Assembly: GCF_000519325.1 (NCBI RefSeq)
Contig: NZ_KI912613.1
Span: 4,173,859 to 4,237,858, forward strand
Source: Patulibacter minatonensis DSM 18081
GTDB taxonomy: Bacteria; Actinomycetota; Thermoleophilia; Solirubrobacterales; Solirubrobacteraceae
Direction: 5' to 3'
Length of the DNA: 64,000 bases
Shown: piece after piece, positions 9,716 through 30,790 of the stretch
Layout of the letters: every line of letters starts with the position of its first letter
How positions within the stretch are numbered: the stretch's first letter is position 1
The notes under the pieces: generated by a model
Databases searched by the model: none
What the model saw: the letters and a program-made list of their open reading frames with translations, nothing else
What the model was told of the DNA's origin: nothing
Position numbers and translations under genes: made by a program

Positions 9716-9736
9716 AGGGCCGGGCCGCTCGGCCCT
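9716..9736 (-). terminator. hairpin at the thiolase stop codon
   Basis: AGGGCCG (9716-9722) and CGGCCCT (9730-9736) form a 7-bp stem with a 7-nt loop directly at the end of the thiolase gene. No U-tract follows. It may be a weak attenuator within the operon or an RNA-stability element. Confidence 0.3.
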
Positions 9737-10887: not shown

Positions 10888-10949
10888 GGTGCTCTCCTCG
10901 TGGTCGGCGCCGGAGCGATGTCCCCGGCGCCGTCAGTGTCGGTGTCGAT

Positions 10950-11954: not shown

Positions 11955-12715
11955 GACGCGGTCCACTTCGGGGCGCGCTTCTCGCGGAACGCCAGCGGCC
12001 CCTCCTGGGCGTCGTCGGAGAGGTAGACGTGCTCCCAGAGCTCGTCGGCCGCCTCGTAGCCCTCCATCAGCCCGAGCGACGCGGACTGGTAGACCATCTT
12101 CTTGCCGGCGCGAACGGACAGCGGGGCGTTCTTGGCGATCGCCTTGGCCATCTCCTCGGCCGCGTCCAGCAGCTCGGCGTGCGGGACGACCCGGTTGACC
12201 AGGCCCACCTGGTAGGCCCGCTCGCACGAGATCGGCTGCGCCGTGGTCAGGAGCTCGAGCGCGACGCGCGGCCCGACGATCCACGCCAGCGGCGACGCCC
12301 ACGGGGCCCCGCGGCCGACCTTCGGCTCGGAGATCGCGTACGTCGCATGGTCGGCGGAGATCACGAGGTCGCACATCTGCGCGATCCGGAACCCGCCCGC
12401 GAACGCGTGGCCGTTGACGGCGGCGATCGTCGGCTTGTCGGTCTTCAGGTCGGTGATGAAGTCCAGGAACAGGTTCTTCGGCGGGACGCCCATCTTGTCC
12501 TGGGACATCTCCTTCAGGTCCGCCCCGGCGCAGAACGCCTTGTCCCCGGCTCCCGTGACGACGAGGACCGCCGCGTCGTCGTCCGCCGCGAACGACTCGG
12601 CGGCGTCGCGGAACGCGTCACGCATCGCCTTGTTCAGCGCGTTGCGGGCCTCCGGGCGATCGATGGTGAGCCACGCGATCCCGTCGCGGACCTCGTACTT
12701 GATGTGTTCGGACAC
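11951..12715 (-). CDS. Enoyl-CoA hydratase/isomerase family protein, first catalytic Glu replaced
   Basis: A crotonase-fold protein of 254 residues: AWLTIDRPEARNALNKAM, GDKAFCAGADLKEM (oxyanion-hole strand) and VNGHAFAGGFRIAQMCDLVIS. In hydratases the G-G-x-E-L segment provides the first catalytic Glu; here the place reads GGFRI, with Arg. The second Glu seems kept in AISEPKVG. The enzyme may therefore be an isomerase, hydrolase or specialised hydratase, as seen for divergent AtuE-like members (inference). GTG at 12715 follows GAGGAG. It lies directly after the carboxyltransferase gene, the order expected for hydration of a carboxylated enoyl-CoA. Confidence 0.88.
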   Translation of the reverse strand: MSEHIKYEVRDGIAWLTIDRPEARNALNKAMRDAFRDAAESFAADDDAAVLVVTGAGDKAFCAGADLKEMSQDKMGVPPKNLFLDFITDLKTDKPTIAAVNGHAFAGGFRIAQMCDLVISADHATYAISEPKVGRGAPWASPLAWIVGPRVALELLTTAQPISCERAYQVGLVNRVVPHAELLDAAEEMAKAIAKNAPLSVRAGKKMVYQSASLGLMEGYEAADELWEHVYLSDDAQEGPLAFREKRAPKWTAS

Positions 12716-12735
12716 GTGTTGCTCCTCTTCGGGGA

Positions 12736-14337
12736 TCAGATGCGCAGCACGCCACCGGGCGTGCGGGTGATGGGTGCGTTCAGGGCGGCCTCGAACGCCA
12801 GGCCGAGGACGGCGCGCGTGTCGGTCGGGTCGATGAGCCCGTCGTCGCGCAGCTCGGAGGTCAGGTGGTACGGGTGCGACGTGCGCTCGAAGTAGTCGCC
12901 GACGTCGTCCCGGATCCGCGCGACCTCCTCGTCGGTCGGCTCGCGCTGCTCCTCGCGCTTGAGGTTCGCGATGCGGACCTGCGTCAGCACGTTGACCGCC
13001 TGCTCGGCACCCATGATCGACGACCGGGAGTTGGGCCACGCGAAGACGAACCGCGGGTCCCAGGCCGGGCCGGCCATCGCATAGTTGCCCGCACCCTGCG
13101 AGGCGTTGACGTAGACCGAGATCTTCGGCACCGTCACGTTCGCCTGGACCATGAGCATCTTCGCGCCGTTCTTCGTGATGCCGCCCCGCTCGTACTCCAG
13201 GCCGACCATGAAGCCGGTGATGTTGTGCAGGAACAGCAGCGGCACGCCGTCGCGGTCGCAGAGCTGCATGAACTGCGACGCCTTGTTGGCGGCCTCGGAG
13301 AACAGCACCCCGTTGTTGCCGAGGATCCCGATCTTCATGCCCATGAGGTAGGCCCAGCCGGTCACCATCGTGTCGCCGTAGTCCGGCTTGAACTCCACGA
13401 AGCGCGAACCGTCGACGATGCGGGCGATGACTTCGCGGACGTCGAACTGCTTCTTGATGTCGTCCGGGACGATCCCGTAGAGCTCGTCGGGGTCGTAGAA
13501 CGGCTCCTCGATCTCGCGCCGGTCGACGTCGGTCTTGGTCTGCTTGGGCCAGGTGCCGACGATCTCGCGGCAGAGCGCGAGGCCCTCACGTTCGTCGTCG
13601 ACCGCATAGTCGGAGGTGCCGGAGACCCCGGCGTGCATGTCGGCGCCGCCGAGCTCCTCGTTCGTGACGTCCTCGCCCGTGGCGGCCTTCACCAACGGCG
13701 GGCCGGCGAGGAAGACGAAGCCGGTGTCACGGACGATGATCGACTGGTCGCACAGCGTGGGCAGGTACGCCCCGCCGGCGGTGGCCGGTCCGAGCGTGAG
13801 CGCCAGGGTCGGGATGCCTTCAGCGCTCAGGCGGCAGAGGCTGTAGTAGATGTGGCCGCCGGCCGCGTAGATCTCATCGCCCAGCGGCAGGAACGCGCCG
13901 CCGGAGTCGACGAGGTTGAGCACCGGCAGGCGGTTTCTCAGGGCGATCTTCAGCGCGCGGACGATCTTGTGGACCGACAGCGGGTACCACGAGCCGCCCT
14001 TCAGCGACGAGTCGCCGGCGGTGATCATGACCTCACGGCCGTTGATGATCCCGATCCCCGTCACGACGAGCCCCTGCGGGGCGTCGCCGTTGTACGCATC
14101 CATGGCGGCGAGCGGGGAGAGCTCCAGGAAGGGCGTCCCGGGGTCCAGGAGCAGCTCCAACCGCTGGCGGACCGTGAGCTTGCCGCGCTCCTCGAGGCGC
14201 TTCAGCGACCGCTCGGGGCGGTCGTACCGCGCAGCGTCCAGATGCTTCTTCAGGTCGGCGGCGAGGCCCAGGTTGGCCTCGCGGTTCGTCCGGAACTGGT
14301 CGGACGTTGTGTCGACGTTCGACACCAGGCGTCGCAT
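12736..14337 (-). CDS. Acyl-CoA carboxylase carboxyltransferase (beta) subunit
   Basis: The 533-residue protein is a complete carboxyltransferase with both crotonase-like halves. The N-half has RLEERGKLTVRQRLELLLDPGTPFLEL; the central HAGVSGTSDYAVDDE is typical of methylcrotonyl/geranyl-CoA carboxylases. The C-half has NNITGFMVGLEYERGGITKNGAKM and QGAGNYAMAGPAWDPRF, where AGNYAM closely follows the MccB/AtuC pattern and differs from propionyl-CoA carboxylase. It transfers CO2 from carboxybiotin to a branched enoyl-CoA. The ATG shares one base with the stop of the biotin-carrier gene (TGATG). Confidence 0.93.
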   Translation of the reverse strand: MRRLVSNVDTTSDQFRTNREANLGLAADLKKHLDAARYDRPERSLKRLEERGKLTVRQRLELLLDPGTPFLELSPLAAMDAYNGDAPQGLVVTGIGIINGREVMITAGDSSLKGGSWYPLSVHKIVRALKIALRNRLPVLNLVDSGGAFLPLGDEIYAAGGHIYYSLCRLSAEGIPTLALTLGPATAGGAYLPTLCDQSIIVRDTGFVFLAGPPLVKAATGEDVTNEELGGADMHAGVSGTSDYAVDDEREGLALCREIVGTWPKQTKTDVDRREIEEPFYDPDELYGIVPDDIKKQFDVREVIARIVDGSRFVEFKPDYGDTMVTGWAYLMGMKIGILGNNGVLFSEAANKASQFMQLCDRDGVPLLFLHNITGFMVGLEYERGGITKNGAKMLMVQANVTVPKISVYVNASQGAGNYAMAGPAWDPRFVFAWPNSRSSIMGAEQAVNVLTQVRIANLKREEQREPTDEEVARIRDDVGDYFERTSHPYHLTSELRDDGLIDPTDTRAVLGLAFEAALNAPITRTPGGVLRI

Positions 14338-14839
14338 CAGGCGATCTCCTCTTCCTCTGCGGCTTCTTCGTCTTCTGCGACGAGCGAGACCAGGGCGGCG
14401 CCCTTCTCGAACGACTCGCCGACCTGCAGGTGCACGCGCTCGACGACGCCCGCGCGCGAAGCGGTGATCTCGCTCTGCATCTTCATGCTCTCGATGACGA
14501 GGAGCACCTGGCGGTCCTGGACCTCGTCGCCGTCGGCGACGCTCACGGTCACGACCGTCCCGGGGGTGGGTGCGACGACGGTGTCCTCGCCCCCGGCCTC
14601 GCGCGCCTTGCGCTCCTCCGGGTCGACGACCGGGACGGCGTGCGCCCGGCCGAAGGCGTGCACGTAGACCGTGTCGCCGTCGACGACGTACCAGATCCGT
14701 TCGCTGCGGTCGCCGACCTGCAGGTCGGCGCCGGCGGGTCCGTCCCGCAGCGCGGCGTCCTGCGCGACGCCGTCGATCCAGACCGTTGCGCTGCCATCCG
14801 CCTTGCGGACGACCTGGATCTCGTTCTCACCGATGCGGA

Positions 14840-14843
<4 letters not shown>
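14337..14843 (-). CDS. Biotin carboxyl carrier protein of the acyl-CoA carboxylase
   Basis: The 168-residue product has a C-terminal biotinyl domain with the biotin-accepting lysine in VIESMKMQSEI and the partner strand VVAPTPGTVVTVSVADGDEV. The N-terminal 80 residues contain VWIDGVAQDAAL and HAFGRAHAV, like the BT-domain region that in fused alpha subunits joins biotin carboxylase to carrier. It therefore looks like the C-terminal third of an AtuF/MccA-type subunit encoded as its own gene. ATG 14843 overlaps the biotin carboxylase stop as ATGA. The tail is acidic (EDEEAAEEEEIA). Confidence 0.93.
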
Positions 14844-16305
<1,462 letters not shown>

Positions 16306-16309
<4 letters not shown>

Positions 16310-18105
16310 GCCGGTGCTCCCGGGCCGAGGAGGTCGCTCAGTTCGTGCGGGACGACGACGGGGATCCCGAGCAGCTGCGCGGCGAACGACTTGCCCTGTG
16401 CGTCGTAGCGCAGCGTCGAGGTGCCGCCGGTGCCCCCGAGGACGTCGTCGAGGAGGAAGTTGAACGCCGAGATGCCCGGGAGCTCCCAGGCGTCGATCTT
16501 CTGGCCGCCGAGCAGGTGCTCGAAGGCGGAGGCCACCCGTTCGGTGCTGACCTGCGCGCGGATCAGCTCCACGAACTCGGGGCGTCGCGCGATCAGACCG
16601 ATGTTGGCCTTGTTCCCCTTGTCGCCGCTGCGCCCGTACGCGATCCGCCGCAGCGGGACGACGGTGCCGCGCGTCGGCTTCTCGGGCGGTCCGCTCGCGG
16701 TCGTCGGAGACGGCTCGGGACGGTCGACCTCGCCCGGCGCGACGTCGATCGACGTCGACTGGTCGCCCACCACGACGGTCACCGGGACCGCGGCCTTGCT
16801 CGTCAGCAGGTGGTAGACCGCGAACACCGGGGCGACACGCGGACGACCGGCATAGGCACCGGACATGCCCATCGCGACGAGGGCGATGGCCGCGGACTCG
16901 CGGGCGAACACCTCGAGCGCCGGCTTCTCCTTGTGCCGCAGACCGACCTTCAGGACGGCCTCGCCGACGTCTGCGGTGGCGTAGCTGCCGCCGATCAGGT
17001 CGCCCCCGCCGACGACCTCGATCGAGACGTGACTCAGCGGCTCGAGGCCGGCCTCGGCGTTCAGCCGCTCCGTCCGGCTCACCATCGCCTCGCCGGCGCG
17101 CCGGGCGCGGGCCGCGGCGTCGAGACCGGCGAACATCCACGTGGCCATCACGCGGTAGCCGTCGTTGTACGTCGCCGTGACCTTGTAGGTCGTCGTCGGC
17201 GGGGTGCCCTTCGCCCCCGAGACGGCGACGCGGTCCGGGCCGGCCTGCTCGAGGGAGATGTTCCGCCAGTCGCAGACGACGTCCGGGGTGATGTAGTTCC
17301 CGGGGTCGCCGATCTCGTAGACGACCTGCTCGCCGACGGTGGCGGGTGTCACGAGCCCGCCGGTCCCCTCCGGCTTCGTGATGATCGCGGTGCCGTCGGC
17401 CTTGATCTCCGCCACGGGGTAGCCCATGTCGTCCCAGCCCGGGACGGCCCACCAGTCGGTGTGGAGGCCGCCCATTCCCTGGGGTCCGCACTCGACGAGG
17501 TGCCCGACGAGCGTGCCGCCGGAGAGCAGGTCGTAGTCGGTGGCCGTCCACCCGAACTCGTGGATCAACGGGCCGAGAACGACCGCGGCGTCGACGCACC
17601 GGCCGGTCACCACGATGTCGGCACCGTCGGCGAGCGCGCGCGCGATCGGGAACGCCCCCAGGTAGGCGTTCATCGACGAGAGCTCGGCGGGGATCTCCTC
17701 GTCGGTGAAGAGGTCGCGCGGGTGGTCGGCGAGGAACCGCTCCTTCTCCGGCAGCAGGTCGTCGCCGTGGACGGCCGCGACGCGGAGCCCGGCGCCGGCC
17801 TCGTCGACCGCGGCCTGCAGCGCCGTCGCCATCGCCACGGCGTTCAGCGCTCCGGCGTTCGTCACGACCTTGATGCCGCGCTCTGCGATCGTCGGCAGGA
17901 GCTCGGTCAGGGCGGACACGGCGTCACCGACGAACCCGGCCTCCGGGTCCTTCGCGCGCGCTCGTGCGAGGAGCGCCATCGTCACCTCGGCGAGGTGATC
18001 GCCAACGAGGTAGTCGATGTCTGGGACCTGCAGGACCTGCCGCGCCGCATGCGGTGTGTCCCCCCAGAACGCTGCCCAACTACCGATCCGAACCTGACTC
18101 TTCAC
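16306..18105 (-). CDS. AtuA-like DUF1446 family protein
   Basis: The 599-residue protein has the two-part architecture of the acyclic-terpene utilisation AtuA family: DUF1446 (about residues 5-450, with GSWAAFWGDTP, DYLVGDHLAEVTMALLA, VVTGRCVDAAVVLGPLIHEFGW) and a C-terminal ferredoxin-fold domain (about 495-599, with IAYGRSGDKGNKANIG). The biochemical role of AtuA is not settled; it is needed for acyclic terpene growth in Pseudomonas. GTG 18105 follows AGAGGAG; the frame stays open to 18171 but passes the promoter. First gene of the carboxylase operon, under operator site B. Confidence 0.88.
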
Positions 18106-18207: not shown

Positions 18208-18840
18208 TCAGTCCGGGGGTCGAAGCACCGCGCCGAGGGTGAGTGCGGCGTAGACCTCGCCGACGCGTTCGACGGAGGCGCTGCCGGAGGCGCGGAACCA
18301 CTCGGGGGTGGCCTCGACGCCGCCGAGGACGAAGCGCATCGCGTGGTCGACGTCGAGGTCCGCGTCCGTCGCCCCGGCATCGACGCACGCCTCGATGAGC
18401 GAGCGCACGTACGCCTCGTAGCGCCCGCGGTATTCGCGGATGATCTCCCGGCCGTCCCCGGCCACGAACCGCCATTCCCGTTGCAGGACGGTGGCTCGTG
18501 CGACGTCGCGCAGGTACCAGTCGATCTGGGCCCGGACGAAGGTCCGGAGGCGCTCGACGGGTTCGACGTCGAGTTTCTCGACGTCCTCGATCATCTGCTC
18601 GGTCTCGTCTCCGGCGGCGGTGAAGACGTTCTCGAGCAGCTCGTCCTTCGACGAGACGTAGTGGTAGAGCGAGCCCTTCAGGACCCCGACGGCCTTGGCG
18701 ATGTCCTGCATCGATGCGCCGGCGAAGCCCTTGTCGCAGAAGACGCCGATCGCGGCGGCCAGCAGCTCGTCGCGACGATCGCGGCGGCCGCTCTTCGCGA
18801 CGGTCGCCGCGGCTCTGCGCTTTCCCGTCGGCGGGGTCAC
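18208..18840 (-). CDS. TetR-family regulator (VLKGSLYHY type)
   Basis: The 210-residue protein has a TetR DNA-binding domain around residues 20-70: ELLAAAIGVFCDKGFAGASMQDIAKAVGVLKGSLYHYVSSKDELL, with SLYHY recognition helix. The ligand domain contains VERLRTFVRAQIDWYLRD and ends VLGGVEATPEWFR. GTG 18840 overlaps the stop of the preceding TetR as GTGA. It is a clear paralogue of the TetR at 28782-29393, sharing GVLKGSLYHY and the ATPEWFR tail. Regulators of this type often control acyl-CoA catabolism (KstR2/FadR-like), but the ligand is not known. Confidence 0.88.
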   Translation of the reverse strand: MTPPTGKRRAAATVAKSGRRDRRDELLAAAIGVFCDKGFAGASMQDIAKAVGVLKGSLYHYVSSKDELLENVFTAAGDETEQMIEDVEKLDVEPVERLRTFVRAQIDWYLRDVARATVLQREWRFVAGDGREIIREYRGRYEAYVRSLIEACVDAGATDADLDVDHAMRFVLGGVEATPEWFRASGSASVERVGEVYAALTLGAVLRPPD

Positions 18841-19433
18841 GCGGGGATCCTCGTCCTGCGGATCATGTTCACCGCGAACTGCGCCGTGTCCCGGGCGACG
18901 GACTCCGCCGAGTCCCCCGCGGCGTGCCGGAACCAGTCCGGGGTCGCGTTCACGGCACCGAGGATGTAGAAGCTCGCGAACCGCGTGTCGAGCGGCTCGT
19001 CGGCACCGGTTTCGCGGCGGCACTCCTCGACGAGACCTCGGAGGTACCTGTCGTACCCGCGGCGCCGCTCGGTGATGAGGCGCTTCCTCTCAGGATCCTG
19101 CACCGAACGCCACTCGCGGAAGAAGACGTTGAGCAGCCGTTCGTCCTCGAGGTACGAGAGCACGTGTCGGCGCAGGTACTCGTAGAGCCGCTCGAGGGGC
19201 GGCAGGCCGAGCGCCTCGACCTGGCGCACGAGGGCCTCGCTCTGCTCGTGTGCGATGTCGAGGATCGCGAACAGCAGGTCCTCCTTCGAGCTGACGTGCT
19301 TGTACACGCTCGGCTTCCGGATGCCCGCGGCGTCCGCGATCTCCTGCACGGACGTCGCGGCGAACCCTTTGCGGGAAAAGACCTCGACGGCGGCGGCGAT
19401 CAGGGCGTCGCGTCTTGACGGTTCCTCGGCCAT
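18837..19433 (-). CDS. TetR-family regulator (IRKxSVYKHV type)
   Basis: A 198-residue TetR protein: ALIAAAVEVFSRKGFAATSVQEIADAAGIRKPSVYKHVSSKEDLL is the DNA-binding domain, followed by LERLYEYLRRHVLSYLEDE and a C-terminal FYILGAVNATPDWFRHA. It is a paralogue of the TetR at 30150-30752 (same DAAGIRKxSVYKHV helix and REW..RRRGYDR segment) and forms an operon with the second TetR by a GTGA overlap. Because its paralogue sits right behind an operator of the seven-site family, one of these two proteins is the best candidate for the common repressor. A TAGCGT -10 box 7 nt before the ATG suggests leaderless expression. Confidence 0.88.
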   Translation of the reverse strand: MAEEPSRRDALIAAAVEVFSRKGFAATSVQEIADAAGIRKPSVYKHVSSKEDLLFAILDIAHEQSEALVRQVEALGLPPLERLYEYLRRHVLSYLEDERLLNVFFREWRSVQDPERKRLITERRRGYDRYLRGLVEECRRETGADEPLDTRFASFYILGAVNATPDWFRHAAGDSAESVARDTAQFAVNMIRRTRIPA

Positions 19434-19503: not shown

Positions 19504-20334
19504 TCAGGTCGACGGGGGGCTGAGGTCGGTGAGGCCTCCGTGGATCTCGAGCACCTGGCCGGTCACGTAGCCGGCGTCGGCGCTGCAGAGGTAGGCGACC
19601 GCCGCGGCGACGTCGTCGGGAACGCCCATCCGCCCGATCGGAACCTTCGCTCTGAGGGCGTCGTAGATCTCGGGCGACAGGGCGTCGGTCAGCATGCGGG
19701 TGGCGATGATCCCCGGCGCCACGGCGTTGACGGTGACCGCGTACGGGGCCCACTCGACGGCCATGGCCTTCGTCAGTCCGACGACGCCGGCTTTCGCCGA
19801 GGCGTAGTTCGCGCCGCCCGGCGCGCCGTGGACCCCGGCGACCGAGCTGACGTTGACGACCCGGCGGCCGGCCCGCGGCTCGCCACGGAACCATGGTGCG
19901 ACGGCCCGCATCCCGTTGAACGACCCGCGCAGGACCACGTCGACGACCAGGCCGAAGTCCTCGTCGCTCATGCGGTGCAGGAAGCCACTGCGGGTCAGGC
20001 CGGCGTTGTTCACGAGGATGGTCGGCGGACCGAGCTCGTCCGCCCCGTCGCGGACGACGGACGCGAAGGCCTCGGGATCGGCGACGTCCAGGCTCGCCGC
20101 GAGCGCGACGTGCCCCTCGTCCGTCAGGCGCGCCGCCGTGCGCTCGGCCTCCTCGCCGTCGAGGTCGGTCACGAGGACCCGCACCCCGTCGGCGGCGAGC
20201 CGGCCCGCGATCGCGGCGCCGATCCCGCGGGCGGCGCCGGTGACGATCGCGACCGGGACGTCCCCGCCGCCGGCCTCCACGCCCTCGGGAGGCGCTGCCG
20301 CGTCGTCGGCCGGCGGGCCCTCCGGCGGCGTCAC
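19504..20334 (-). CDS. SDR-family 3-ketoacyl reductase-like protein
   Basis: The 276-residue product has an SDR core from about residue 30: VAIVTGAARGIGAAIAG, VTDLDGEEAE, VNNAGLTRSGFLHRMSDEDF, catalytic NYASAKAGVVGLTKAMAVEW and VNAVAPGIIATRM. The GFLHRM and ASAKAG segments resemble FabG-type ketoreductases. The first 28 residues are low-complexity (PPEGPPADDAAAPPEG) and may be a spurious or disordered extension, but the GTG at 20334 overlapping the ligase stop as GTGA is an attractive coupled start. It is the last gene of the HyuA-HyuB-ligase operon; a role in making the ketone or reducing a ketoacyl-CoA is possible. Confidence 0.85.
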   Translation of the reverse strand: MTPPEGPPADDAAAPPEGVEAGGGDVPVAIVTGAARGIGAAIAGRLAADGVRVLVTDLDGEEAERTAARLTDEGHVALAASLDVADPEAFASVVRDGADELGPPTILVNNAGLTRSGFLHRMSDEDFGLVVDVVLRGSFNGMRAVAPWFRGEPRAGRRVVNVSSVAGVHGAPGGANYASAKAGVVGLTKAMAVEWAPYAVTVNAVAPGIIATRMLTDALSPEIYDALRAKVPIGRMGVPDDVAAAVAYLCSADAGYVTGQVLEIHGGLTDLSPPST

Positions 20335-21914
20335 CGCGTGGCCGCGCGGAGCGCGCCGATGGTCGTCACGCCGTCGGCTTCGCGCACGAGCAGACCCTCG
20401 ACCTCGTCGCGCAGCGCAGCGTTCATCTTGGTGCGCTTCGCCGCCGTGCGCGGGATCTCGTCGACCCGGGCGTAGAGCCGCGGACGCTTCCAGCGCTCGA
20501 TGCGCGCGACGCACCACGCGTCGAGCTCGTCGCGGATCGCGGCCTCGTCGACGTCGTCCTCGAAGACGACGAACGCCGCGGGGACGGTCCCGAACCGCTC
20601 GTGCTCGACGCCGACGCTGCCGGTGTCCTTGACCTTCGGGTGCGCGAGCAGGCACTCGTCGATCTCGAGCAGCGAGAGCTTCTCGCCGCCGGTGAGAATG
20701 AGGTCGTCCGTGCGCCCGCGGATGTAGAGCCAGCCGTCCTGGTCGCGGTAGGCGTTGTCGCGCGTGTGCAGGAAGCCCTCCTCGTCGGTGGCGTCCGCGG
20801 TGCGCTCGGGGTCGTTGAAGTACCCCGGGGTCACGACCTCGCCGCGGATGCAGACCTCACCCTCGACGTCCCCGCCCTCGAGGGTCTCGCCCGTGACCGG
20901 GTCCGCGAGCTTGAGCTCGCAGAAGTCGCGGTCGGGACGGCCCGACGACAGCGGAGGGAGCCCCTGCTCCTCCCCGTAGTACAGGGAGACGCCGCTGACG
21001 ATCGACATCGACTCGGTCATGCCGTACAGCGTGCCGACCTGCGCGCCCTTGGCACGGAGCCCGTCGAAGACGTCCTGCGGGACCGGCTCGCCGGCCACGT
21101 GCGTCTTCAGTCCGTCCAGGTCGAGATCGGCCCACCCGGGGTGGGCCATGAGGTCGCGGACCATCGTGGGGACGATGTGGAAGATCGAGTTGACGCCGCG
21201 CGCCCGGAGCAGGTCGACGACCCGGCCGGCGTCCCAGCCGTCGCTCCACACGATCGTGCCGCCGAGGAACACGAAGCGGATGCAGTCGATGATCCCGCCG
21301 CTGTGGAACATGCTGACGACGGAGAGGTTCCGCGTCCGACTCGAGAGGCCGGCGTGGAGCACCGACGCCATCGCGGACGGCCCGAGGCTGCCGTGGGGCA
21401 TCACGACGCCCTTGGACGCCCCCGACGTGCCGGCCGTGAAGTTCACCGCGGCGGCGTCGGTGCCGGCACGCGAGACGATCTTTCGCTCGGCGGAGACGCC
21501 CGAGCACCGCTCGCGCAGCTCCTCCGTGGTGAGGACGAGCCCCAGGGTGGGGCACGACGACCGGAGGTGCTCCGCGATGCCCGTGTAGTCCGGACTCGCG
21601 ATCAGCACCTTCGCGCCGCAGCGCTCGACGTCCGCGACGAGCTTCTCCTTCGTCGCCCGGCGGTTCAGGCCGCTGAAGACGCCGCCGATGCGCATGGCCG
21701 CGTAGAACGTCGCGACGTGCAGGTGGTCGTCGGGCATGAGCGTGACCACGACGTCGTCCCACCCCACACCCGCCTCGTCCGCCAGGACGTTGGAGATGCG
21801 GCCGGACAGGTCGCGCAGCTCGCTGTACGTGACGCTCGGGCCGCCGCCGTCGACGACCGCTTCCTTGTCGGGGTGCTCCCACGATGCCTTCTCCAGGAAC
21901 CAGGTGAGGTTCAC
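20331..21914 (-). CDS. Acyl-CoA synthetase (AMP-forming), copy 1
   Basis: A 527-residue adenylate-forming ligase. The ATP loop is FTAGTSGASKGVVMPHG, the Y-G-x-T-E motif is LYGMTESMS, and the hinge region GWLYIRGRTDDLILTGGEKLSL carries the ribose-binding Asp/Arg. C-terminal IPRTAAKRTKMNAALRD replaces the usual P-x-T-x-x-GK loop. The protein is a close paralogue of the ligase at 26294-27889 (identical NAYRDQDGWLYIRGRTDD). GTG 21914 follows GAAGGAG. It lies after HyuB, separated by a strong hairpin, and is coupled to an SDR. Activation of a keto acid formed by the Hyu proteins is a reasonable hypothesis. Confidence 0.9.
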   Translation of the reverse strand: MNLTWFLEKASWEHPDKEAVVDGGGPSVTYSELRDLSGRISNVLADEAGVGWDDVVVTLMPDDHLHVATFYAAMRIGGVFSGLNRRATKEKLVADVERCGAKVLIASPDYTGIAEHLRSSCPTLGLVLTTEELRERCSGVSAERKIVSRAGTDAAAVNFTAGTSGASKGVVMPHGSLGPSAMASVLHAGLSSRTRNLSVVSMFHSGGIIDCIRFVFLGGTIVWSDGWDAGRVVDLLRARGVNSIFHIVPTMVRDLMAHPGWADLDLDGLKTHVAGEPVPQDVFDGLRAKGAQVGTLYGMTESMSIVSGVSLYYGEEQGLPPLSSGRPDRDFCELKLADPVTGETLEGGDVEGEVCIRGEVVTPGYFNDPERTADATDEEGFLHTRDNAYRDQDGWLYIRGRTDDLILTGGEKLSLLEIDECLLAHPKVKDTGSVGVEHERFGTVPAAFVVFEDDVDEAAIRDELDAWCVARIERWKRPRLYARVDEIPRTAAKRTKMNAALRDEVEGLLVREADGVTTIGALRAATR

Positions 21915-21950
21915 GGCGACTCCTTCTCGGTGATCTTCGCTGAAACACGA

Positions 21951-21984
21951 CCGCGGGGCCGGGGCGTCGGCCCCGGCCCCGCGG
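21951..21984 (-). terminator. 15-bp GC hairpin between hyuB and the ligase gene
   Basis: The arm CCGCGGGGCCGGGGC (21951-21965) is perfectly complementary to 21970-21984, with a GTCG tetraloop. It lies 23 bp after the HyuB stop and 37 bp before the ligase start. There is no U-tract. A stem this stable should act as an intrinsic terminator or attenuator and lower ligase/SDR expression relative to HyuAB. Confidence 0.65.
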
Positions 21985-22006
21985 CGGATGATGTGGAGCG
22001 GGCCGC

Positions 22007-23956
22007 CTAGGCGGTCCGGCGCTCCTGACGGGTGCGCTCGGTCGCCTCGAGGTCGAGGACCAGGCCCTCCGGATCGCGGTCCGGATCGCCGCTGACGACG
22101 ACGCCGTACTGCTCCAGGGCACCGCCGATCGTCGAGTAGCCGTCGCGGACGTCGTTCTTCACGCGCTCGGGGTCGCGGTCGAGGGGGTCGCCCCAGCCGC
22201 CGCCGCCGTTCGTGATGTACCGCCACATGGCGTCCGGCTGCGTCTGCCAGACCGGGTTGCGGGCGAAGTAGAAGAACTCACCGTTCTCCGGGTCCAGCAC
22301 ATGGGTCTCGGGGTCCATGAGCCCCCCGACGGGCGTCGCATCCCGGTAGGCGGCCTCGTCGACACCGAGCAGTTTCTGCTTCCCGGCGACGTCGAACTGC
22401 TCCTTCTCGATCTTCCAGACGCCTCCGACCGAGCCTTCCCCGCCGCCGTTGACGCCCACGCCGCTGGAGTGACGCATGTGCAGCGGCATGACGTAGTGGT
22501 CCGCGGCCGTCCGCCAGAGCGAGTCGCGCCGGACGGCGTGCCCGCCGCGGTTCGCGCCCGGTCCGGCCGTGTCCGGGACGTACTCCTTGCGCAGCATCAC
22601 CATCGGCGCGTCCGTCTCGGCGGCTTCGGTCGGCGGATCGAACGAGTTCGCGTAGAACGGCACGTTGTAGCCGTCGCCGTCACCGTGCCGGGAGCCGCCC
22701 CACGGTCCGTGCTCGCCGCCGGCGACCGCCTGGGAGCCCCAGGGCGTGCCGTCGGGCGTCAGGCCGTTGGCGTTGTGCAGGCAGAGGGAACCGAAATCCG
22801 CGCCGACCGCCTCAACGCCGAGCGCCTTCTGCATGGCGCGGAACATGGCGGTGATCAGCGGAGCCGTGGTCTCCCAGTACAGGAAGATCGCGCTGTCCGG
22901 CGGCATCGCGCTGACCATCGTGCCCGGCGGTATGACGATGTCGAGGTGTCGGTAGCTGCCGGTGTTGTAGTGGCTGCGTCGATCGATCAGCAGGCGCAGC
23001 GCGAGCCCGATCATCGTCTTCGCGTCGAGGAACCCACCGTTGATCGAGCCGAGCGCCTGGCGGGACGTCCCCGACAGGTCGACCTCGCAACGCCCACCGC
23101 GCTTGTTCACGCGGAGCTTGATCGTGTACTCCTCCGGGTTCACCCCGTCGGCGTCGATCGTGTCCTCGCCGTGGTAGATCCCGTCCGGGACGCCCTGCAG
23201 CGCGGTCTGCATGGTCTCGGCCGCGCCGTCGACGGCAAAGCGCAGGGCACCGATGAGCGCGTCGCGCCCGTAGCGCTCGAGCGTCTCCTCCATTAGCCGG
23301 GCCGCGAGCAGCAGGCTCTGATGGATGGTCATGAGGTCGGACAGGATGATCCCGCCGGCCCGGACGTTGTCGAGGAAGATGCTGAAGGTCGACTTGACCG
23401 GCACGCCCTCGCGGAACAGCAGGATGGGCGGGAGCACCAGCCCGTTCTCGTAGATGTTGGCCTTCGTGCCCGAGAAGCCGTACGGCACCGTGCCGCCCAT
23501 GTCCATCTGGTGCGCCTGGATCGACGCGAAGCAGCTGAGCTTCCCCTCGTGGAAGATCGGCATCGTGAACAGCGTGTCGTTGACGTGCGAGCCGATCCGG
23601 TTGGGGTCGTTGCACATCAGGACGTCGCCCGGCTTCAGGTCCTCCGGGCCGAACTCCTCGACGGCGTTGCGCACGCCGTCGGCCATCAGGCCGGTGAAGA
23701 CCGCCACGCTCTGCGAGGCCACGGCCATCGCGTAGTCCTCCTCGGGCGGCCCCGAGAGCGTCGCCGCGAAGTCGTACCAGTCGCGGATGATCGGGGAGAA
23801 CGCCCTGGTCACGAGGCCGGTCGACATGTGCCCGACGGCGTACCTGCACCGGCTCGCGAGCACCGTGGCGGTGAGGCGGTCGGTGTTGTAGCGCTCCTTG
23901 AACTCGTCCTCGCCGAGATCGCGCAGCGCCTTGACGGTGGTGGACGTGGTGCTCAT
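22007..23956 (-). CDS. HyuB (hydantoinase B/oxoprolinase) family subunit
   Basis: The 649-residue protein shows the HyuB order: early SPIIRDWYDFAATL, GDVLMCNDPNRIGSHVNDTLFTMPIFHEGKLSCFASIQAHQMDMGG (the N-D-P and H-x-x-D metal motifs), YIxLRVNKRGGRCEVDLSGTSRQALGSIN and a C-terminal GPGANRGGHAVRRD. In acetone and acetophenone carboxylases this subunit binds metal and carries out carboxylation, while HyuA activates substrates with ATP. HyuB length is nearer the family norm (550-650) than that of AcxB (about 770). The ATG overlaps the HyuA stop (ATGA). Confidence 0.9.
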   Translation of the reverse strand: MSTTSTTVKALRDLGEDEFKERYNTDRLTATVLASRCRYAVGHMSTGLVTRAFSPIIRDWYDFAATLSGPPEEDYAMAVASQSVAVFTGLMADGVRNAVEEFGPEDLKPGDVLMCNDPNRIGSHVNDTLFTMPIFHEGKLSCFASIQAHQMDMGGTVPYGFSGTKANIYENGLVLPPILLFREGVPVKSTFSIFLDNVRAGGIILSDLMTIHQSLLLAARLMEETLERYGRDALIGALRFAVDGAAETMQTALQGVPDGIYHGEDTIDADGVNPEEYTIKLRVNKRGGRCEVDLSGTSRQALGSINGGFLDAKTMIGLALRLLIDRRSHYNTGSYRHLDIVIPPGTMVSAMPPDSAIFLYWETTAPLITAMFRAMQKALGVEAVGADFGSLCLHNANGLTPDGTPWGSQAVAGGEHGPWGGSRHGDGDGYNVPFYANSFDPPTEAAETDAPMVMLRKEYVPDTAGPGANRGGHAVRRDSLWRTAADHYVMPLHMRHSSGVGVNGGGEGSVGGVWKIEKEQFDVAGKQKLLGVDEAAYRDATPVGGLMDPETHVLDPENGEFFYFARNPVWQTQPDAMWRYITNGGGGWGDPLDRDPERVKNDVRDGYSTIGGALEQYGVVVSGDPDRDPEGLVLDLEATERTRQERRTA

Positions 23957-25974
23957 GCGGCCCTCCTGATCAGGATCTCGCTGCGGCTGCCGACGGTGGC
24001 CGTCTGACCGGCGCGCAGGAACGTGGTGGACGTGGTCTCGCGGATGATCGCGGGACCCTCGATGACGTCGCCGGCGCGCAGGTCGTCGCGGGAGTAGACC
24101 GCGGCCTCCGTCTCGTCCGGGTTCAGGTACTTCAGCGGCACGGTCTTGATCGGCGACAGCGTCGTGCCCTCGTCCCGTGCCGGGAGCTCGGGGTACTGGA
24201 CCTTGTCGATCGCGACCGTCGCGTGGACGCGGTACGTGACGCCCTGCACCGGGATCGGATCGAACCGATGGCCGGCGCGCTGCTCGTAGTTCGTGTGGAA
24301 CGCCTCGATCAGCTCCGCGACATCGATCTCACCCCTCCCGACAGGGATGAACGGGGTCTCCCAGCTCTGCCCGTAGAGTCGGCCGTCGAAGCTCCGGACG
24401 AACTCCGCACCCTCGGCCCGGTCGCCCATCTGCTCGCGCAGCGACGCCTCCATCGACTGGTACACCTCTTCGATGCTGGGACCGGCATCGGGGGTGAGCA
24501 CCGTGTAGGCGCTCCGACTGGCGGAGTACACCTGGTCGGCGGAGAGCAGACCGAGGGCCGAGAACACGCCGGGATGCGGCGGGATCATGACCTGCTCGAC
24601 GTGCACGAGGTCGAGCACGGCCGGGAGCAGCATGCCGCCGGCCGCGCCGAACGCGACGAGGGTGAAGTCGCGGGGATCGAGGCCGTACTTGACCGAGATG
24701 TTGGTCAGGCCCTCGGCGATGTTGTTCAGGCCGACCTCGTACGCGCTCTTGACGCGCTCCTCGAACGGGAGCACCGAGTCGAGACTCTCGAACGCCTTCT
24801 TCGAGAGCGCGGGATCGAGGCTCATGCGACCACCGGCGAAGCCGTCGGGATCGATGATCCCCATGAGCATGCAGGTGTCCGTCGTGGTCGGCAGGACGCC
24901 ACCACGGCCGTAGCACGCCGGGCCGGGCTCGGAGCCCGCGCTCTCAGGTCCGACAGTGAGCTCGCCGCTCGGGCCGATGGCGACGATGCTGCCGCCGCCG
25001 GCGCCGATGCTCGTGATCTCCGTCGAGAGCGCGTTGACGAGCAGCTCGTGCTCGAGCTCGAAGGTCGTGTTGATGAACGGCTCGCCGTCCTGGACGACGG
25101 AGAGATCGCAGGACGTGCCGCCGATGTCGGCGCACAGCAGGTTGCCGAGGCCCATGGGCTCGCCGAAGTACGCGCTGGAGACCGTGCCGGCGGCCGGACC
25201 GGCGAAGACGATCTTGAACGGCGTCTTCATCGCCACCTCGACGGGGCTGAGGCGCGCCATGCAGTCCGCGAGGTTCAGCTGTCCCTTGAAGCCCTCGGCC
25301 CGGAGCCCGTCGTCGAGCTTCCGCGCGTAATCCGTGTAGATCAGCTTCATGAAGACGTCGACGATCGTCGTCGACGCACGGGTGTACTCCTTCGCCAGCG
25401 GCGAGACCTCCGAGGAGATCGAGACCGGGACGTCGCCCAGGACCTCGCGGGCGAGCTCGGCCAGACGGACCTCGTGCTTGCCGTCGACGTAGGCATTGAT
25501 GAGGCAGATCGCCACGCCCTGGACGCCGCAGCGCTTGAGGACCTCGAGCTCGGCACGGGCCTGGTCCTCGTCCAGCGGGATCAGCGTGCCACCGTCGGCG
25601 GTGAGGCGCTCCGCGATGCCCCGGCGCAGGTACCGCGGCACGAGCGGCTTGTTGACGTCACCCCACGGGCGCGTCCACGTCGGGTCGGTCAGCGCCTCCT
25701 GCGGACGCCACGCGCGACCCATGTCCGGGATGTCCCGGTGCCCCTCGGTGGTGAGGAACCCGATCTTCGGGAGGCGCCGCGTGATGACGGCGTTCAGGCC
25801 GTGCGTGCTGGCGTGGTTGAACACCGGGGCGTTCTCGACCCCGAGCTCGACGGCGCCCGCGATCACCCCCTTGTGGGTCTCCCCGACGTTCGTCGCGACC
25901 TTCGCGACCGTGATCACGCCGTTCTGCACGGACACGACGTCCGTGAAGGTGCCTCCAACATCGACTCCGAGCAC
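23953..25974 (-). CDS. HyuA (hydantoinase A/oxoprolinase) family ATPase subunit
   Basis: A 673-residue actin-fold ATPase: MLGVDVGGTFTDVVSVQNG at the N-terminus binds phosphate, IVFAGPAAGTVSSAY and LCADIGGTSCDLSVVQDGEP are the central hydantoinase A motifs, and the C-terminal 150 residues form the usual HyuA_C part. Homologues are 5-oxoprolinase, N-methylhydantoinase and the ATP-binding subunits of acetone and acetophenone carboxylase, which phosphorylate the carbonyl compound and bicarbonate. GTG 25974 lies 4 bp after the Zn-ribbon stop with a poor Shine-Dalgarno, so coupling is likely. No 5-oxoproline context is seen. Confidence 0.9.
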   Translation of the reverse strand: MLGVDVGGTFTDVVSVQNGVITVAKVATNVGETHKGVIAGAVELGVENAPVFNHASTHGLNAVITRRLPKIGFLTTEGHRDIPDMGRAWRPQEALTDPTWTRPWGDVNKPLVPRYLRRGIAERLTADGGTLIPLDEDQARAELEVLKRCGVQGVAICLINAYVDGKHEVRLAELAREVLGDVPVSISSEVSPLAKEYTRASTTIVDVFMKLIYTDYARKLDDGLRAEGFKGQLNLADCMARLSPVEVAMKTPFKIVFAGPAAGTVSSAYFGEPMGLGNLLCADIGGTSCDLSVVQDGEPFINTTFELEHELLVNALSTEITSIGAGGGSIVAIGPSGELTVGPESAGSEPGPACYGRGGVLPTTTDTCMLMGIIDPDGFAGGRMSLDPALSKKAFESLDSVLPFEERVKSAYEVGLNNIAEGLTNISVKYGLDPRDFTLVAFGAAGGMLLPAVLDLVHVEQVMIPPHPGVFSALGLLSADQVYSASRSAYTVLTPDAGPSIEEVYQSMEASLREQMGDRAEGAEFVRSFDGRLYGQSWETPFIPVGRGEIDVAELIEAFHTNYEQRAGHRFDPIPVQGVTYRVHATVAIDKVQYPELPARDEGTTLSPIKTVPLKYLNPDETEAAVYSRDDLRAGDVIEGPAIIRETTSTTFLRAGQTATVGSRSEILIRRAA

Positions 25975-25978
25975 GGGG

Positions 25979-26212
25979 TCAGCCCTTCGATCCGGGGATG
26001 AGCGACGAGTACACCTGGACGGGTCCGAGCAGCGGGCCCTTGGTCCGCTCCACGGAGCACAGGCACTCCTGGCACTTGACGACGTCGAACCAGCCGCCTT
26101 CGCTCAGCACGGGGTACCGCTGCAGTGCGGACGCACCGCACTCCGGACAGGTGCCGTCGACCGTCTCGCGTTCGACTGCGAGCGTCTTCTCTGTGGGGCG
26201 CGGGTAGATCAC
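25979..26212 (-). CDS. Small Zn-ribbon protein, possible carboxylase gamma-type subunit
   Basis: The 77-residue protein has CPEC at residues 22-25 and CQECLC at 47-52, spaced as one zinc ribbon, followed by the hydrophobic VQVYSSLIPGSKG end. It is the first gene of the HyuA-HyuB operon, immediately behind operator site C and a good AGAGGAG. Acetone and acetophenone carboxylases carry a small zinc-binding gamma subunit next to the HyuA/HyuB-like ones, which makes this the natural counterpart; the sequence is too short for me to prove homology. GTG start. Confidence 0.7.
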   Translation of the reverse strand: MIYPRPTEKTLAVERETVDGTCPECGASALQRYPVLSEGGWFDVVKCQECLCSVERTKGPLLGPVQVYSSLIPGSKG

Positions 26213-26242
26213 GCGGACTCCTCTTTCCTTCGGACGAACGCG

Positions 26243-26262
26243 AAGCTACCAAACGACTGGTT
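26243..26262 (-). promoter_or_regulatory. promoter and operator (site C) of the Hyu operon
   Basis: TACCAAACGACTGGTT (26247-26262) abuts TAGCTT (26248-26243, read leftward), a TAnnnT -10 box about 30 bp before the Zn-ribbon start. It shares all its first ten bases with site A apart from the central G/A change, so bioY and the Hyu operon are probably under the same repressor. Confidence 0.6.
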
Positions 26263-26293
26263 CCGTTGGGTAGATCTTTTTTCGTCCCCGCTC

Positions 26294-27889
26294 CTACCGG
26301 GCCGCCTTCAGCCCGGAGAGCGTGGTGATCCCGTCGGCGTCCTTGATCACGTGGCCCTCGAGATAGCGCTTGAGGACCGGGGTCATCTTCGTCTGCTTCG
26401 CGGTCCTGGGAAGCTCGTCGATCAACGCGTAGAGGCGCGGGCGCTTCCATCGCTCGAGGCGCTCCAGGCACCACGCGTCGAGGATGTCCCGGGCCTCCTC
26501 CTCGCCCACCGAGGTCTTCATGACCACGAACGCGGCCGGTACCTCGCCGAACCGCTCGTGGTCGGCGCCGACGACGCCGGCGTCGTGCACGTCGGGGTGC
26601 GAGAGGAGGATCTCGTCGATCTCCAGCAGCGAGAGCTTCTCACCGCCGGTGTTGATGATGTCGTCCGTGCGCCCACGGATGTAGAGCCAGCCGTCCTGGT
26701 CGCGGTAGGCGTTGTCCCTCGTGTGCAGATAGCCCTCGTCGTCGAACGAGGCCGCCGTGCGCTCGGGGTCGTTGAAGTACCCCGGCGTCACGACGTCGCC
26801 GCGGATGCAGATCTCGCCCTCGACGTCTCCGCCCTCGAGGGTCTCCCCCGTCACCGGGTCGGCGAGCTTGACCTCGCAGAACGTCTTGCTCGGCTTGCCC
26901 GACGCCAGGTCTGGCGGGTCCTCGTCGCCGTAGTAGAGCGACGTGGCCAGGACGCAGACCGGCATGGTCTCGGTCATGCCGTACATGCGGCCGATGCGCA
27001 CGCCCTTCTTCTCGAGCGCTGCGCTGACGTCCGGCGGGATCGGCTCGCCCGAGACGTGGGTGTGCAGCCCGTCGAGGTCCAGCCCGGGCCAGTCGGGGTG
27101 CCGCAGCAGGTCCCGGACCATCGTCGGGATGATGTAGTACATCCAGTTGGGCTTGTGCTCCCGGATGATCCGGACGACGCGGTCGACGTCCCACCCGTCG
27201 GTCCACAGGATCGTGCCACCGACCATCGCGTTGCGGATGCAGTCCGCGATGCCCCCGGAGTGGAACATCGAGATCAGCGACACGTTCTTGGCGTCGCTCC
27301 TCATGCCGGTGAGGAAGATCGAGTTCCAGCAGGAGACGCCGAGCTTGCCGTGCGTGTACATGACGCCCTTGGACGTGCCGCTCGTGCCGCTCGTGAAGTT
27401 GATCGCGGCGAGGTCGGCCTCGGCGCGGGCGACGACGCGGAACTCGTCGGAGGCGGCGTCGAGCAGCTCGCCGATGTTCGGGTAGCGCGGATGCTCGCCC
27501 TCGGTCACGTAGATGCGGCGGATCGACGGCTGGTCCTCGAGCAGCTCCGCCTGCGGCAGGAACTCGGGCGAGACGATGAGGATGCTCGCCTGCGAGCGCT
27601 CCACGTCGTGGACGAACTTCTCCGGCAGGTTCCGGCGGTTCAGGCCGGTGAACGCCCCGCCCGCGCGGATCGCCGCGTAGAAGATCGCCATGTGGCGATG
27701 GTCGTCGTGGAGGATCGTCGCGACGACGTCGTCCTCCTTCAGCCCCGCGTCATCCACCAGCACGTTCGAGAGCCGGTTCGACAGCGCACGGAGCTCGGTG
27801 TAGGTCGCCGAGGTCCCGTTCCCGTTCACCACCGCGGTCTTGTCAGGGTGCTCCCACCACGCACGTTCGAGCCACCAACCAAGGTTCAT
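26294..27889 (-). CDS. Acyl-CoA synthetase (AMP-forming), copy 2
   Basis: The 531-residue adenylate-forming ligase has FTSGTSGTSKGVMYTHG (ATP loop), RMYGMTETMPV, and GWLYIRGRTDDIINTGGEKLSL. It differs from copy 1 mainly in the N-terminal substrate domain while long blocks are identical, so the pair arose by duplication. The ATG at 27889 follows GAGGAGATGACCGG; codons farther upstream overlap the divergent promoter. It is transcribed away from an SDR gene across operator site D (27918-27933), which may serve both. Substrate unknown; an organic acid, possibly aromatic or branched, is likely from context. Confidence 0.9.
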   Translation of the reverse strand: MNLGWWLERAWWEHPDKTAVVNGNGTSATYTELRALSNRLSNVLVDDAGLKEDDVVATILHDDHRHMAIFYAAIRAGGAFTGLNRRNLPEKFVHDVERSQASILIVSPEFLPQAELLEDQPSIRRIYVTEGEHPRYPNIGELLDAASDEFRVVARAEADLAAINFTSGTSGTSKGVMYTHGKLGVSCWNSIFLTGMRSDAKNVSLISMFHSGGIADCIRNAMVGGTILWTDGWDVDRVVRIIREHKPNWMYYIIPTMVRDLLRHPDWPGLDLDGLHTHVSGEPIPPDVSAALEKKGVRIGRMYGMTETMPVCVLATSLYYGDEDPPDLASGKPSKTFCEVKLADPVTGETLEGGDVEGEICIRGDVVTPGYFNDPERTAASFDDEGYLHTRDNAYRDQDGWLYIRGRTDDIINTGGEKLSLLEIDEILLSHPDVHDAGVVGADHERFGEVPAAFVVMKTSVGEEEARDILDAWCLERLERWKRPRLYALIDELPRTAKQTKMTPVLKRYLEGHVIKDADGITTLSGLKAAR

Positions 27890-27917: not shown

Positions 27918-27937
27918 AACCAACCGTATGGTAGCCT
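27918..27937 (+). promoter_or_regulatory. operator (site D) and -10 box of the SDR gene
   Basis: AACCAACCGTATGGTA (27918-27933) is the reverse complement form of the shared operator (TACCATACGGTTGGTT). It runs into TAGCCT (27932-27937), a -10 box ending 7 nt before the GTG at 27945, so the SDR transcript is probably leaderless. Its other side faces the ligase start at 27889. Confidence 0.6.
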
Positions 27938-27944
27938 GATCACC

Positions 27945-28727
27945 GTGTCCAGCGTCACAGACAGGGTCGCACTCGTGACAGGCGCCGGAGGAGGAATCGG
28001 CCGCGCAACCGTCGAGCGTCTCGTGGCGGGCGGGGCGTCGGTCGTGGCGACCGACCTGGAGGCCCCGGCCGGGTTCGACGCTCACGGCGAGCACGTCGTC
28101 GCGATCGCCGCCGACGTGCGGTCCCGGCCCTCGCTCGACGCCGCGGTCGACCGGGCGCGCGAGCGGTTCGGCCGACTCGACATCGTCTCGGCGAACGCCG
28201 GGGTCTTCACGGCGATCGGGAAGACGTGGGAGGTGCCCGAGGAGGACTTCTCTCGGGTGCTCGACATCAACCTCACCGGGACCTTCCGCACGATCCAGGC
28301 GGCCGTGCCCGCGATCCTCGAGGGCGGTCGCGGCGGCTCGATCGTGCTGACCAGCTCGGTCGCCGCGATGGTCGGCGTCCGTCGCACGGCCGCCTACGCG
28401 GTCTCGAAGCACGGACTGTCCGGACTGACGAAGGTCCTCGCGAACGACCTCGGAGCGGACGGCGTGCGGGTGAACTCCGTGCACCCGACGATGGTCGCCA
28501 CGGACATGGTGCACTCGGACGAGATGCTGCGGCGATTGGTGCCCGGAGTCGAGGATCCGCAGGTGGAGGACCTCGAGAGGCTGCAGCGCGGGAGCCACGT
28601 CCTGCAGGTCCCGTGGGTGCAGGCCCTCGACGTCGCCGAGGCCATCCACTTCCTCTGCACCGACGCGGCGCGGCACCTCACCGGCGTCGAACTCCCGGTC
28701 GACGCCGGGTACCTCGTCAAGACCTGA
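27945..28727 (+). CDS. SDR-family oxidoreductase
   Basis: A 260-residue classical SDR with RVALVTGAGGGIGRATVERL (cofactor loop), VVATDLEAPAG, SANAGVFTAIG, catalytic YAVSKHGLSGLTKVLANDL and VNSVHPTMVATDMVHSD. The ATDLEAP acidic residue suggests NAD. Insertion of about 10 residues (VPGVEDPQVEDLERLQ) before the C-terminus is like mycofactocin-linked or (-)-trans-carveol-type SDRs, but no mfa genes are here. GTG 27945 lies directly at the predicted transcript start, and no Shine-Dalgarno is present, in line with leaderless translation. Divergent from ligase copy 2. Confidence 0.88.
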   Translation: MSSVTDRVALVTGAGGGIGRATVERLVAGGASVVATDLEAPAGFDAHGEHVVAIAADVRSRPSLDAAVDRARERFGRLDIVSANAGVFTAIGKTWEVPEEDFSRVLDINLTGTFRTIQAAVPAILEGGRGGSIVLTSSVAAMVGVRRTAAYAVSKHGLSGLTKVLANDLGADGVRVNSVHPTMVATDMVHSDEMLRRLVPGVEDPQVEDLERLQRGSHVLQVPWVQALDVAEAIHFLCTDAARHLTGVELPVDAGYLVKT

Positions 28728-30758: not shown

Positions 30759-30790
30759 AAGCTACCAGGGGGCGTACCGAACGGTTGGTT
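30759..30790 (-). promoter_or_regulatory. promoter and operator (site E) of the tetR-SDR-tetR operon
   Basis: TACCGAACGGTTGGTT (30775-30790) is followed leftward by a second TACC half-element and the -10 box TAGCTT (30764-30759). About 30 bp here, from the -10 box to the operator end, are almost identical to site F at 33620-33650 before the LuxR gene, apart from one extra G. Confidence 0.62.

What the first reader, a model, noticed from the sequence alone, without database searches (positions are those of the whole stretch)
19504..27889. HyuA-HyuB-Zn-ribbon operon next to acyl-CoA ligases: a candidate ATP-dependent ketone carboxylase pathway
The order Zn-ribbon (77 aa), HyuA, HyuB, ligase, SDR mirrors the parts of acetone/acetophenone carboxylases (HyuA-like ATPase, HyuB-like metal subunit, small zinc subunit) followed by a keto-acid CoA ligase. 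A thiolase that could cleave the resulting 3-ketoacyl-CoA lies in the neighbouring operon, and SDRs could make the ketone from an alcohol. There is no sign of hydantoin or 5-oxoproline use. If true, this is a carboxylation route for ketones in an actinobacterium, linked by operator to biotin-dependent carboxylation.
Basis: partly seen in the sequence, partly recalled or inferred. Interest (0 to 1): 0.66.

Follow-up and report, generated by a model that had tools for sequence, protein, structure and literature searches.

The report
Zinc-ribbon HyuAB complex, likely ketone carboxylase
A soil actinobacterium carries three co-transcribed genes that look like a stripped-down, ATP-driven enzyme complex for attaching CO2 to ketones; the same three genes sit together in many unrelated bacteria, no published study of the trio was found, and what it really does is not proven.

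Summary
On the minus strand, zinc ribbon (ZnR, 77 aa), HyuA, HyuB, a CoA ligase and an SDR are packed head to tail behind a palindromic operator; a second ligase lies upstream. The operator occurs exactly six times in the 5.5-Mb genome, all within about 40 kb, and also precedes the AtuA/biotin-carboxylase operon. ZnR adjoins HyuA-HyuB in 74 of 80 named relatives from five phyla; five of the six exceptions are at contig ends. The clade is distinct from Apc, Acx and known hydantoinases. Carboxylase-like: gene order gamma-alpha-beta as in apcBCD; a 41-55-residue insert in HyuB shared with Apc and Acx, 11-18 in hydantoinases; CoA ligases near 20/67 loci versus 0/28 gamma-less HyuAB loci. Against: HyuA and HyuB fall on the hydantoinase side of the tree (HyuB not firmly), ZnR is not detectably an AcxC/ApcB homologue, and alpha', epsilon and the C-terminal arm are missing. 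I read it as a third alpha-beta-gamma type in the hydantoinase/ketone-carboxylase family, more likely a ketone carboxylase than a ring hydrolase (about 0.5 to 0.2). Membership in Apc or Acx is not met. No activity was tested.

The parts
25979..26212 (-). ZnR: 77-aa zinc ribbon (C22, C25, C47, C50), proposed gamma subunit
   Evidence: Conserved next to HyuAB in 74/80 relatives; alignments; AlphaFold pLDDT 87.6, zinc-ribbon fold
23953..25974 (-). HyuA: ASKHA-type ATP-binding subunit (alpha)
   Evidence: Pfam; DVGGTFTD, DIGGTS and GxxPGP motifs kept
22007..23956 (-). HyuB: metal subunit (beta), ligands D62, H124, D127, H149; carboxylase-length insert at about 508-562
   Evidence: Pfam; alignment; AlphaFold pLDDT 91.5, matches CapB, NMHase, Apc, Acx
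20331..21914 (-). AMP-forming acyl-CoA ligase 2 (start inferred)
   Evidence: Pfam AMP-binding
19504..20262 (-). SDR, FabG-like
   Evidence: Pfam and NCBIfam
18837..19433 (-). TetR-family regulator, end of the ZnR operon
   Evidence: Pfam TetR_N/TetR_C_24
26247..26262 (.). operator TACCAAACGACTGGTT before ZnR
26294..27889 (-). AMP-forming acyl-CoA ligase 1, separate unit
   Evidence: Pfam
27918..27933 (.). operator between ligase 1 and the divergent SDR
27954..28727 (+). SDR whose best NCBIfam model is the mycofactocin-coupled family (start inferred)
   Evidence: TIGR03971, 253 bits, below its 300-bit cut-off; mycofactocin radical-SAM gene present in the genome
18136..18151 (.). operator before the AtuA/biotin-carboxylase operon
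16306..18093 (-). AtuA-family protein (start inferred)
   Evidence: Pfam
12736..16309 (-). biotin carboxylase, biotin carrier domain and carboxyltransferase
   Evidence: Pfam and NCBIfam
9736..12736 (-). enoyl-CoA hydratase, NMO-like flavoprotein, thiolase
   Evidence: Pfam
30775..30790 (.). operator between a TetR gene and the P450 gene
33635..33650 (.). operator before the LuxR-type gene, next to the APH-type kinase gene

Best explanation
ZnR, HyuA and HyuB form one alpha-beta-gamma enzyme. HyuA uses ATP to phosphorylate the enol(ate) of a ketone and probably bicarbonate in turn, as proposed for acetone carboxylase; the activated pieces pass to the divalent metal site in HyuB (D62, H124, D127, H149), where the C-C bond forms and a beta-keto acid leaves. 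ZnR is a structural gamma subunit, perhaps docked on the HyuB insert. The neighbouring SDRs would make the ketone from an alcohol (made by the P450 or similar), the CoA ligases would activate the beta-keto acid, and the thiolase of the co-regulated operon would cleave it; that operon's biotin-dependent carboxylase with AtuA would handle a branched, perhaps terpenoid, acyl-CoA. Shown here: gene order, conservation of the trio, conservation of catalytic residues, insert, operators. Inferred: complex formation, the reaction, the substrate and gamma docking.
For: Trio conserved in 74/80 named loci from Actinomycetota, Chloroflexota, Bacillota, Pseudomonadota and Myxococcota, ZnR upstream in 70 and downstream in 4, as expected for subunits. 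Order gamma-alpha-beta equals apcB-apcC-apcD, with a ligase in the operon as in A. aromaticum (PMC5214803). HyuB insert 41-55 residues in ZnR-linked proteins, 41-45 in Apc, 47-49 in Acx, 11-18 in hydantoinases; the model aligns over 598 residues with Apc and 610 with Acx, but 573 with CapB and 573 with NMHase. All ATP motifs and metal ligands kept. Ligases near 20/67 ZnR loci against 0/28 gamma-less HyuAB loci (Fisher p 5.5e-4); SDRs 32/67 against 5/28 (p 0.010). One regulon with P450, SDR, ligases, thiolase and biotin carboxylase.
Against: HyuA and HyuB score best against caprolactamase and N-methylhydantoinase and fall on the hydantoinase side (AU p 0.024 for HyuA). Close to a metal ligand, position 155 is Gly as in 10 of 11 hydantoinase-type rows, not Ala/Ser/Thr as in the carboxylases. 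No alpha' or epsilon subunit; the C-terminal arm that holds gamma in Apc is absent (3-11 residues after position 640 in the clade against 45-71 in the genome-derived Apc and Acx rows; two hydantoinase rows also have long tails). ZnR is not detectably AcxC/ApcB. The control loci come mostly from one order, so the enrichment may be partly taxonomic. No substrate evidence.
Confidence: 0.47

Rival explanations
1. An ATP-dependent ring hydrolase (lactam, lactone or imide) of the hydantoinase/caprolactamase type that gained a small structural zinc-ribbon subunit; the ligase then activates the opened acid.
For: Closest characterised relatives by score are caprolactamase and N-methylhydantoinase; tree position and Gly155.
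Against: Hydantoinases have no gamma subunit (PMC5214803) and lack the insert. The acid/base Tyr136 proposed for CapB (PMC8453981) is Phe161 (Leu in one row) in this clade. No amidase or carbamoylase among the commonest neighbour families.
Confidence: 0.2
2. A carboxylase of this family acting on something other than a free ketone, for example an enone, aldehyde or acyl-CoA enol.
For: Same carboxylase-like features; neighbours vary widely (SDR, ALDH, ADH, ECH, E1 dehydrogenase, acyl-CoA dehydrogenase), so substrates may differ between loci. ZnR has a weak resemblance to subunit D of hydroxyarylic acid decarboxylases (VdcD best E 0.005, 5/17 members; ShdD E 0.075).
Against: No direct evidence for any substrate; the VdcD/ShdD resemblance was not seen in the fold comparison, whose list is not exhaustive.
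Confidence: 0.2
3. The ketone in this window is carboxylated by the co-regulated biotin-dependent carboxylase, as HpeCBA does, and HyuAB only phosphorylates or prepares the substrate.
For: Biotin carboxylase, carrier and carboxyltransferase share the operator; HpeCBA needs a phosphorylated substrate made by a kinase (PMC9618137).
Against: AtuA, enoyl-CoA hydratase and thiolase in the same run of genes suggest acyl-CoA chemistry; homologues of this carboxylase were not found within 4 kb of any of 67 ZnR loci, so it is not a general partner.
Confidence: 0.08

Closest known systems
Acetophenone carboxylase ApcABCDE (Aromatoleum aromaticum, 5L9W)
   Same: alpha, beta and small four-Cys gamma subunit in the order gamma-alpha-beta; ligase in the operon; HyuB insert of similar length; same ATP motifs and metal ligands
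   Different: No alpha' or epsilon; gamma 77 aa with its two CxxC pairs 21 residues apart instead of 49 and no detectable homology; no C-terminal gamma-embracing arm; HyuA/HyuB in another clade
Acetone carboxylase AcxABC (5SVB, 5M45)
   Same: Three-subunit alpha-beta-gamma make-up with a single ATP-binding subunit; HyuB insert of similar length
   Different: Gene order (gamma last in Acx), gamma family PF08882, HyuB 649 aa against 776, different clade, Asp62 where Acx has Glu
Caprolactamase CapAB and N-methylhydantoinase (6YRA, 7HK5)
   Same: Closest in sequence score and tree position; same metal and ATP sites
   Different: Have no gamma subunit and no long HyuB insert; CapB Tyr136 is Phe here
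Subunit D of hydroxyarylic acid decarboxylases (VdcD, ShdD)
   Same: Small four-Cys ribbon of similar length; weak profile similarity
   Different: No decarboxylase partner seen here; similarity not significant

Membership tests
Acetone carboxylase (Acx) | gamma subunit of family PF08882 | tested here: not met
   No PF08882 match in G000; ZnR has none up to E 1; hhalign probability 2%
Acetone carboxylase (Acx) | HyuA and HyuB in the Acx clade | tested here: not met
   Acx rows form their own clade, support 100, without the ZnR rows
Acetone carboxylase (Acx) | gene order alpha-beta-gamma | tested here: not met
   gamma comes first in the window and in 70 of 74 relatives
Acetophenone carboxylase (Apc) | gene order gamma-alpha-beta (apcBCD) | tested here: met
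   order from PMC5214803
Acetophenone carboxylase (Apc) | second HyuA-like subunit alpha' | tested here: not met
   No second HyuA in the operon
Acetophenone carboxylase (Apc) | HyuA and HyuB in the Apc clade | tested here: not met
Acetophenone carboxylase (Apc) | R/KERiDsxG motif of Apc alpha | tested here: not met
   Window has AERLTADG
Hydantoinase/ketone-carboxylase superfamily | ASKHA ATP motifs in HyuA; metal ligands D/E, H, D, H in HyuB | tested here: met
Hydantoinase/lactamase (Hyd) | two-subunit make-up, no gamma | tested here: not met
   ZnR linked in 74/80 relatives
Hydantoinase/lactamase (Hyd) | HyuB without the long insert | tested here: not met
   Insert 55 residues in the window against 11-18
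Ketone carboxylases (functional) | ATP- and ketone-dependent bicarbonate fixation | not testable with these tools
   Needs purified enzyme

The most novel reading that the evidence does not exclude
A third, phylum-spanning lineage of biotin-free ATP-dependent ketone carboxylases, derived on the hydantoinase side of the family, whose gamma role is filled by an unrelated minimal zinc ribbon that in some lineages has lost its cysteines; in this window it would serve degradation of a branched or terpenoid ketone together with a biotin-dependent acyl-CoA carboxylase.
Probability: 0.3. Interest if true: 0.8.

Novelty: new variant of a known kind. Interest (0 to 1): 0.6.

Why it matters
Only two kinds of ATP-dependent, biotin-free ketone carboxylase are characterised in the papers read here. 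A third that is common in many phyla, with three subunits and a 77-residue gamma, would give a simpler system for asking how this family switches between hydrolysing rings and making C-C bonds, what the gamma subunit does, and which ketones bacteria use by fixing CO2. It would also give a better name to many genes now annotated only as hydantoinase.

Tried and rejected
PF08882 as the family of ZnR: rejected at sequence level. Foldseek and VIA-align of the ZnR model against PDB: best matches are generic zinc ribbons of transcription proteins at Z 4.2 or less; ShdD, ApcB and AcxC were not in the list, which excludes nothing. VdcD/ShdD as a relative of ZnR: only weak profile scores, kept as a lead. 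Papers: searches combining hydantoinase with ketone, carboxylase, ligase or actinobacterial genera found no study of a ZnR-linked HyuAB; the held library is partial. The search for isoprenoid-ketone carboxylation returned nothing usable.

Full report
Observation. The window lies at 4173859-4237858 of a 5.52-Mb single-contig genome. Its same-family relatives include genomes whose contig lengths equal those of Solirubrobacter soli and Conexibacter records, so it is probably a member of Solirubrobacterales; this is inferred. The minus-strand run ZnR-HyuA-HyuB-ligase-SDR-TetR is confirmed. HyuA and HyuB overlap by four bases and ZnR ends just before HyuA, as in an operon. A second ligase (27889-26294) lies upstream as its own unit, divergent from an SDR whose best NCBIfam model is the mycofactocin-coupled family; the mycofactocin radical-SAM gene is in the genome.

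Operator. Comparing intergenic regions gave a shared palindrome. WACCRNNCGNNYGGTW has five exact sites in the window (18136, 26247, 27918, 30775, 33635) and six in the genome, the sixth 6.7 kb before the window, upstream of an FMO-like monooxygenase followed by a 3-hydroxyacyl-CoA dehydrogenase; the reversed pattern occurs once. With one mismatch two more appear, at 1309 (before a BioY biotin-transporter gene) and 36983 (near an acyl-CoA dehydrogenase gene). The sites lie at ZnR-HyuAB, ligase 1/SDR, P450/TetR, a LuxR/APH-type pair, and the run AtuA, biotin carboxylase, carboxyltransferase, enoyl-CoA hydratase, NMO-like protein, thiolase. Which regulator binds is unknown.

Conservation. ZnR was found in 20 of 232 genomes of the order; in the 13 genomes with the strongest matches besides the window's own, HyuA and HyuB lie beside it. 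A scan of named genomes with the HyuB alignment returned 80 loci; 74 have ZnR, 70 upstream of HyuB and 4 downstream. Of the six without it, five begin within about 1.5 kb of a locus end with HyuA absent or cut, and the sixth (L081) has only a HyuA fragment. Hosts include Pseudonocardia, Amycolatopsis, Rhodococcus jostii, Gordonia, Tsukamurella, Streptomyces, Thermogemmatispora, Neobacillus, Aneurinibacillus, Burkholderia, Caballeronia and several MAGs. 59 of 74 ZnR proteins keep the CxxC...CxxC pattern; 15 lack it but keep the stretch around YPVLSEGGW, so zinc is probably structural and that stretch functional (inference).

Family placement. NCBIfam and PDB comparisons put HyuA nearest to caprolactamase and N-methylhydantoinase, then Apc, then Acx; HyuB likewise. 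Trees of 48 sequences each place all ZnR-linked proteins, including five distant ones, in one clade (support 99 for HyuA, 100 for HyuB), separate from Apc and Acx and on the side of the hydantoinases. Forcing ZnR, Apc and Acx together is weakly rejected for HyuA (p 0.024) and not for HyuB (p 0.24).

Carboxylase-like traits. The stretch of HyuB matching window residues 508-562 has 41-55 residues in ZnR-linked proteins, 41-49 in Apc and Acx, and 11-18 in eight hydantoinase-type proteins. The CapB and NMHase PDB rows hold only their aligned parts, so their counts are not used; NMHase has five residues between its two aligned pieces. The HyuB model (pLDDT 91.5) aligns over more residues with Apc (598) and Acx (610) than with CapB or NMHase (573 each), though its Z is higher with CapB (38.8 against 33.4 and 30.4). 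Metal ligands and ATP motifs are intact.

Hydantoinase-like traits. Position 155 is Gly as in 10 of 11 hydantoinase-type rows; the R/KERiDsxG motif is altered; there is no alpha', epsilon or C-terminal arm. ZnR shows no detectable homology to PF08882.

Neighbours. In 102 genes nearest the trio the commonest families are SDR (15), AMP-ligase (8), aldehyde dehydrogenase (6), and enoyl-CoA hydratase, E1 dehydrogenase and zinc alcohol dehydrogenase (4 each). In 65 genes beside gamma-less HyuAB, mostly from Solirubrobacterales, FAD-dependent oxidoreductases lead (9), SDR are 2, and ligases are not among the 25 families shown. A direct count within 4 kb gives ligases 20/67 against 0/28 and SDR 32/67 against 5/28; acyl-CoA dehydrogenase goes the other way, 3/67 against 5/28. 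The control is taxonomically narrower than the test set.

Known context. Apc and Acx structures, gene orders and length criteria are from PMC5214803 and PMC5543143; caprolactamase from PMC8453981. A biotin-dependent route for ketones exists in Rhodococcus (PMC9618137), so actinobacterial ketone carboxylation is not new as such. No study of a ZnR-linked HyuAB was found in the held papers.

Conclusion. The trio is real, conserved and probably a three-subunit enzyme; it fails defining tests of Apc, Acx and the two-subunit hydantoinases. I favour a ketone carboxylase (0.47), with ring hydrolysis (0.2) and another carboxylation substrate (0.2) as main rivals. Only biochemistry can decide.

Noticed in passing
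1309-1324 and 663-1256: One-mismatch operator copy before a BioY biotin-transporter gene, fitting a regulon that includes a biotin-dependent carboxylase.
   Followed up: partly
33704-36998: APH-type kinase gene beside an acyl-CoA dehydrogenase gene, with operator copies at 33635 and (one mismatch) 36983; the pairing recalls ACAD10/11-type 4-hydroxyacyl-CoA breakdown, from memory, not tested.
   Followed up: no
L053, L054, L056, L060-L063, L074, L083, L084, L095, L097, L101, L114, L125: ZnR homologues without the CxxC...CxxC pattern but with the stretch around YPVLSEGGW kept.
   Followed up: partly
18208-19433, 28782-29390, 30150-30752: Four TetR-type genes with TetR_C_24 domains in about 12 kb.
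   Followed up: no
L198:9445-13055: FMO-like monooxygenase and a further CoA ligase next to the sixth operator, just outside the window.
   Followed up: partly
G000:C1:5171942-5173444 (L173): A second, gamma-less HyuA-HyuB pair elsewhere in the same genome, used here as a hydantoinase-type reference.
   Followed up: partly
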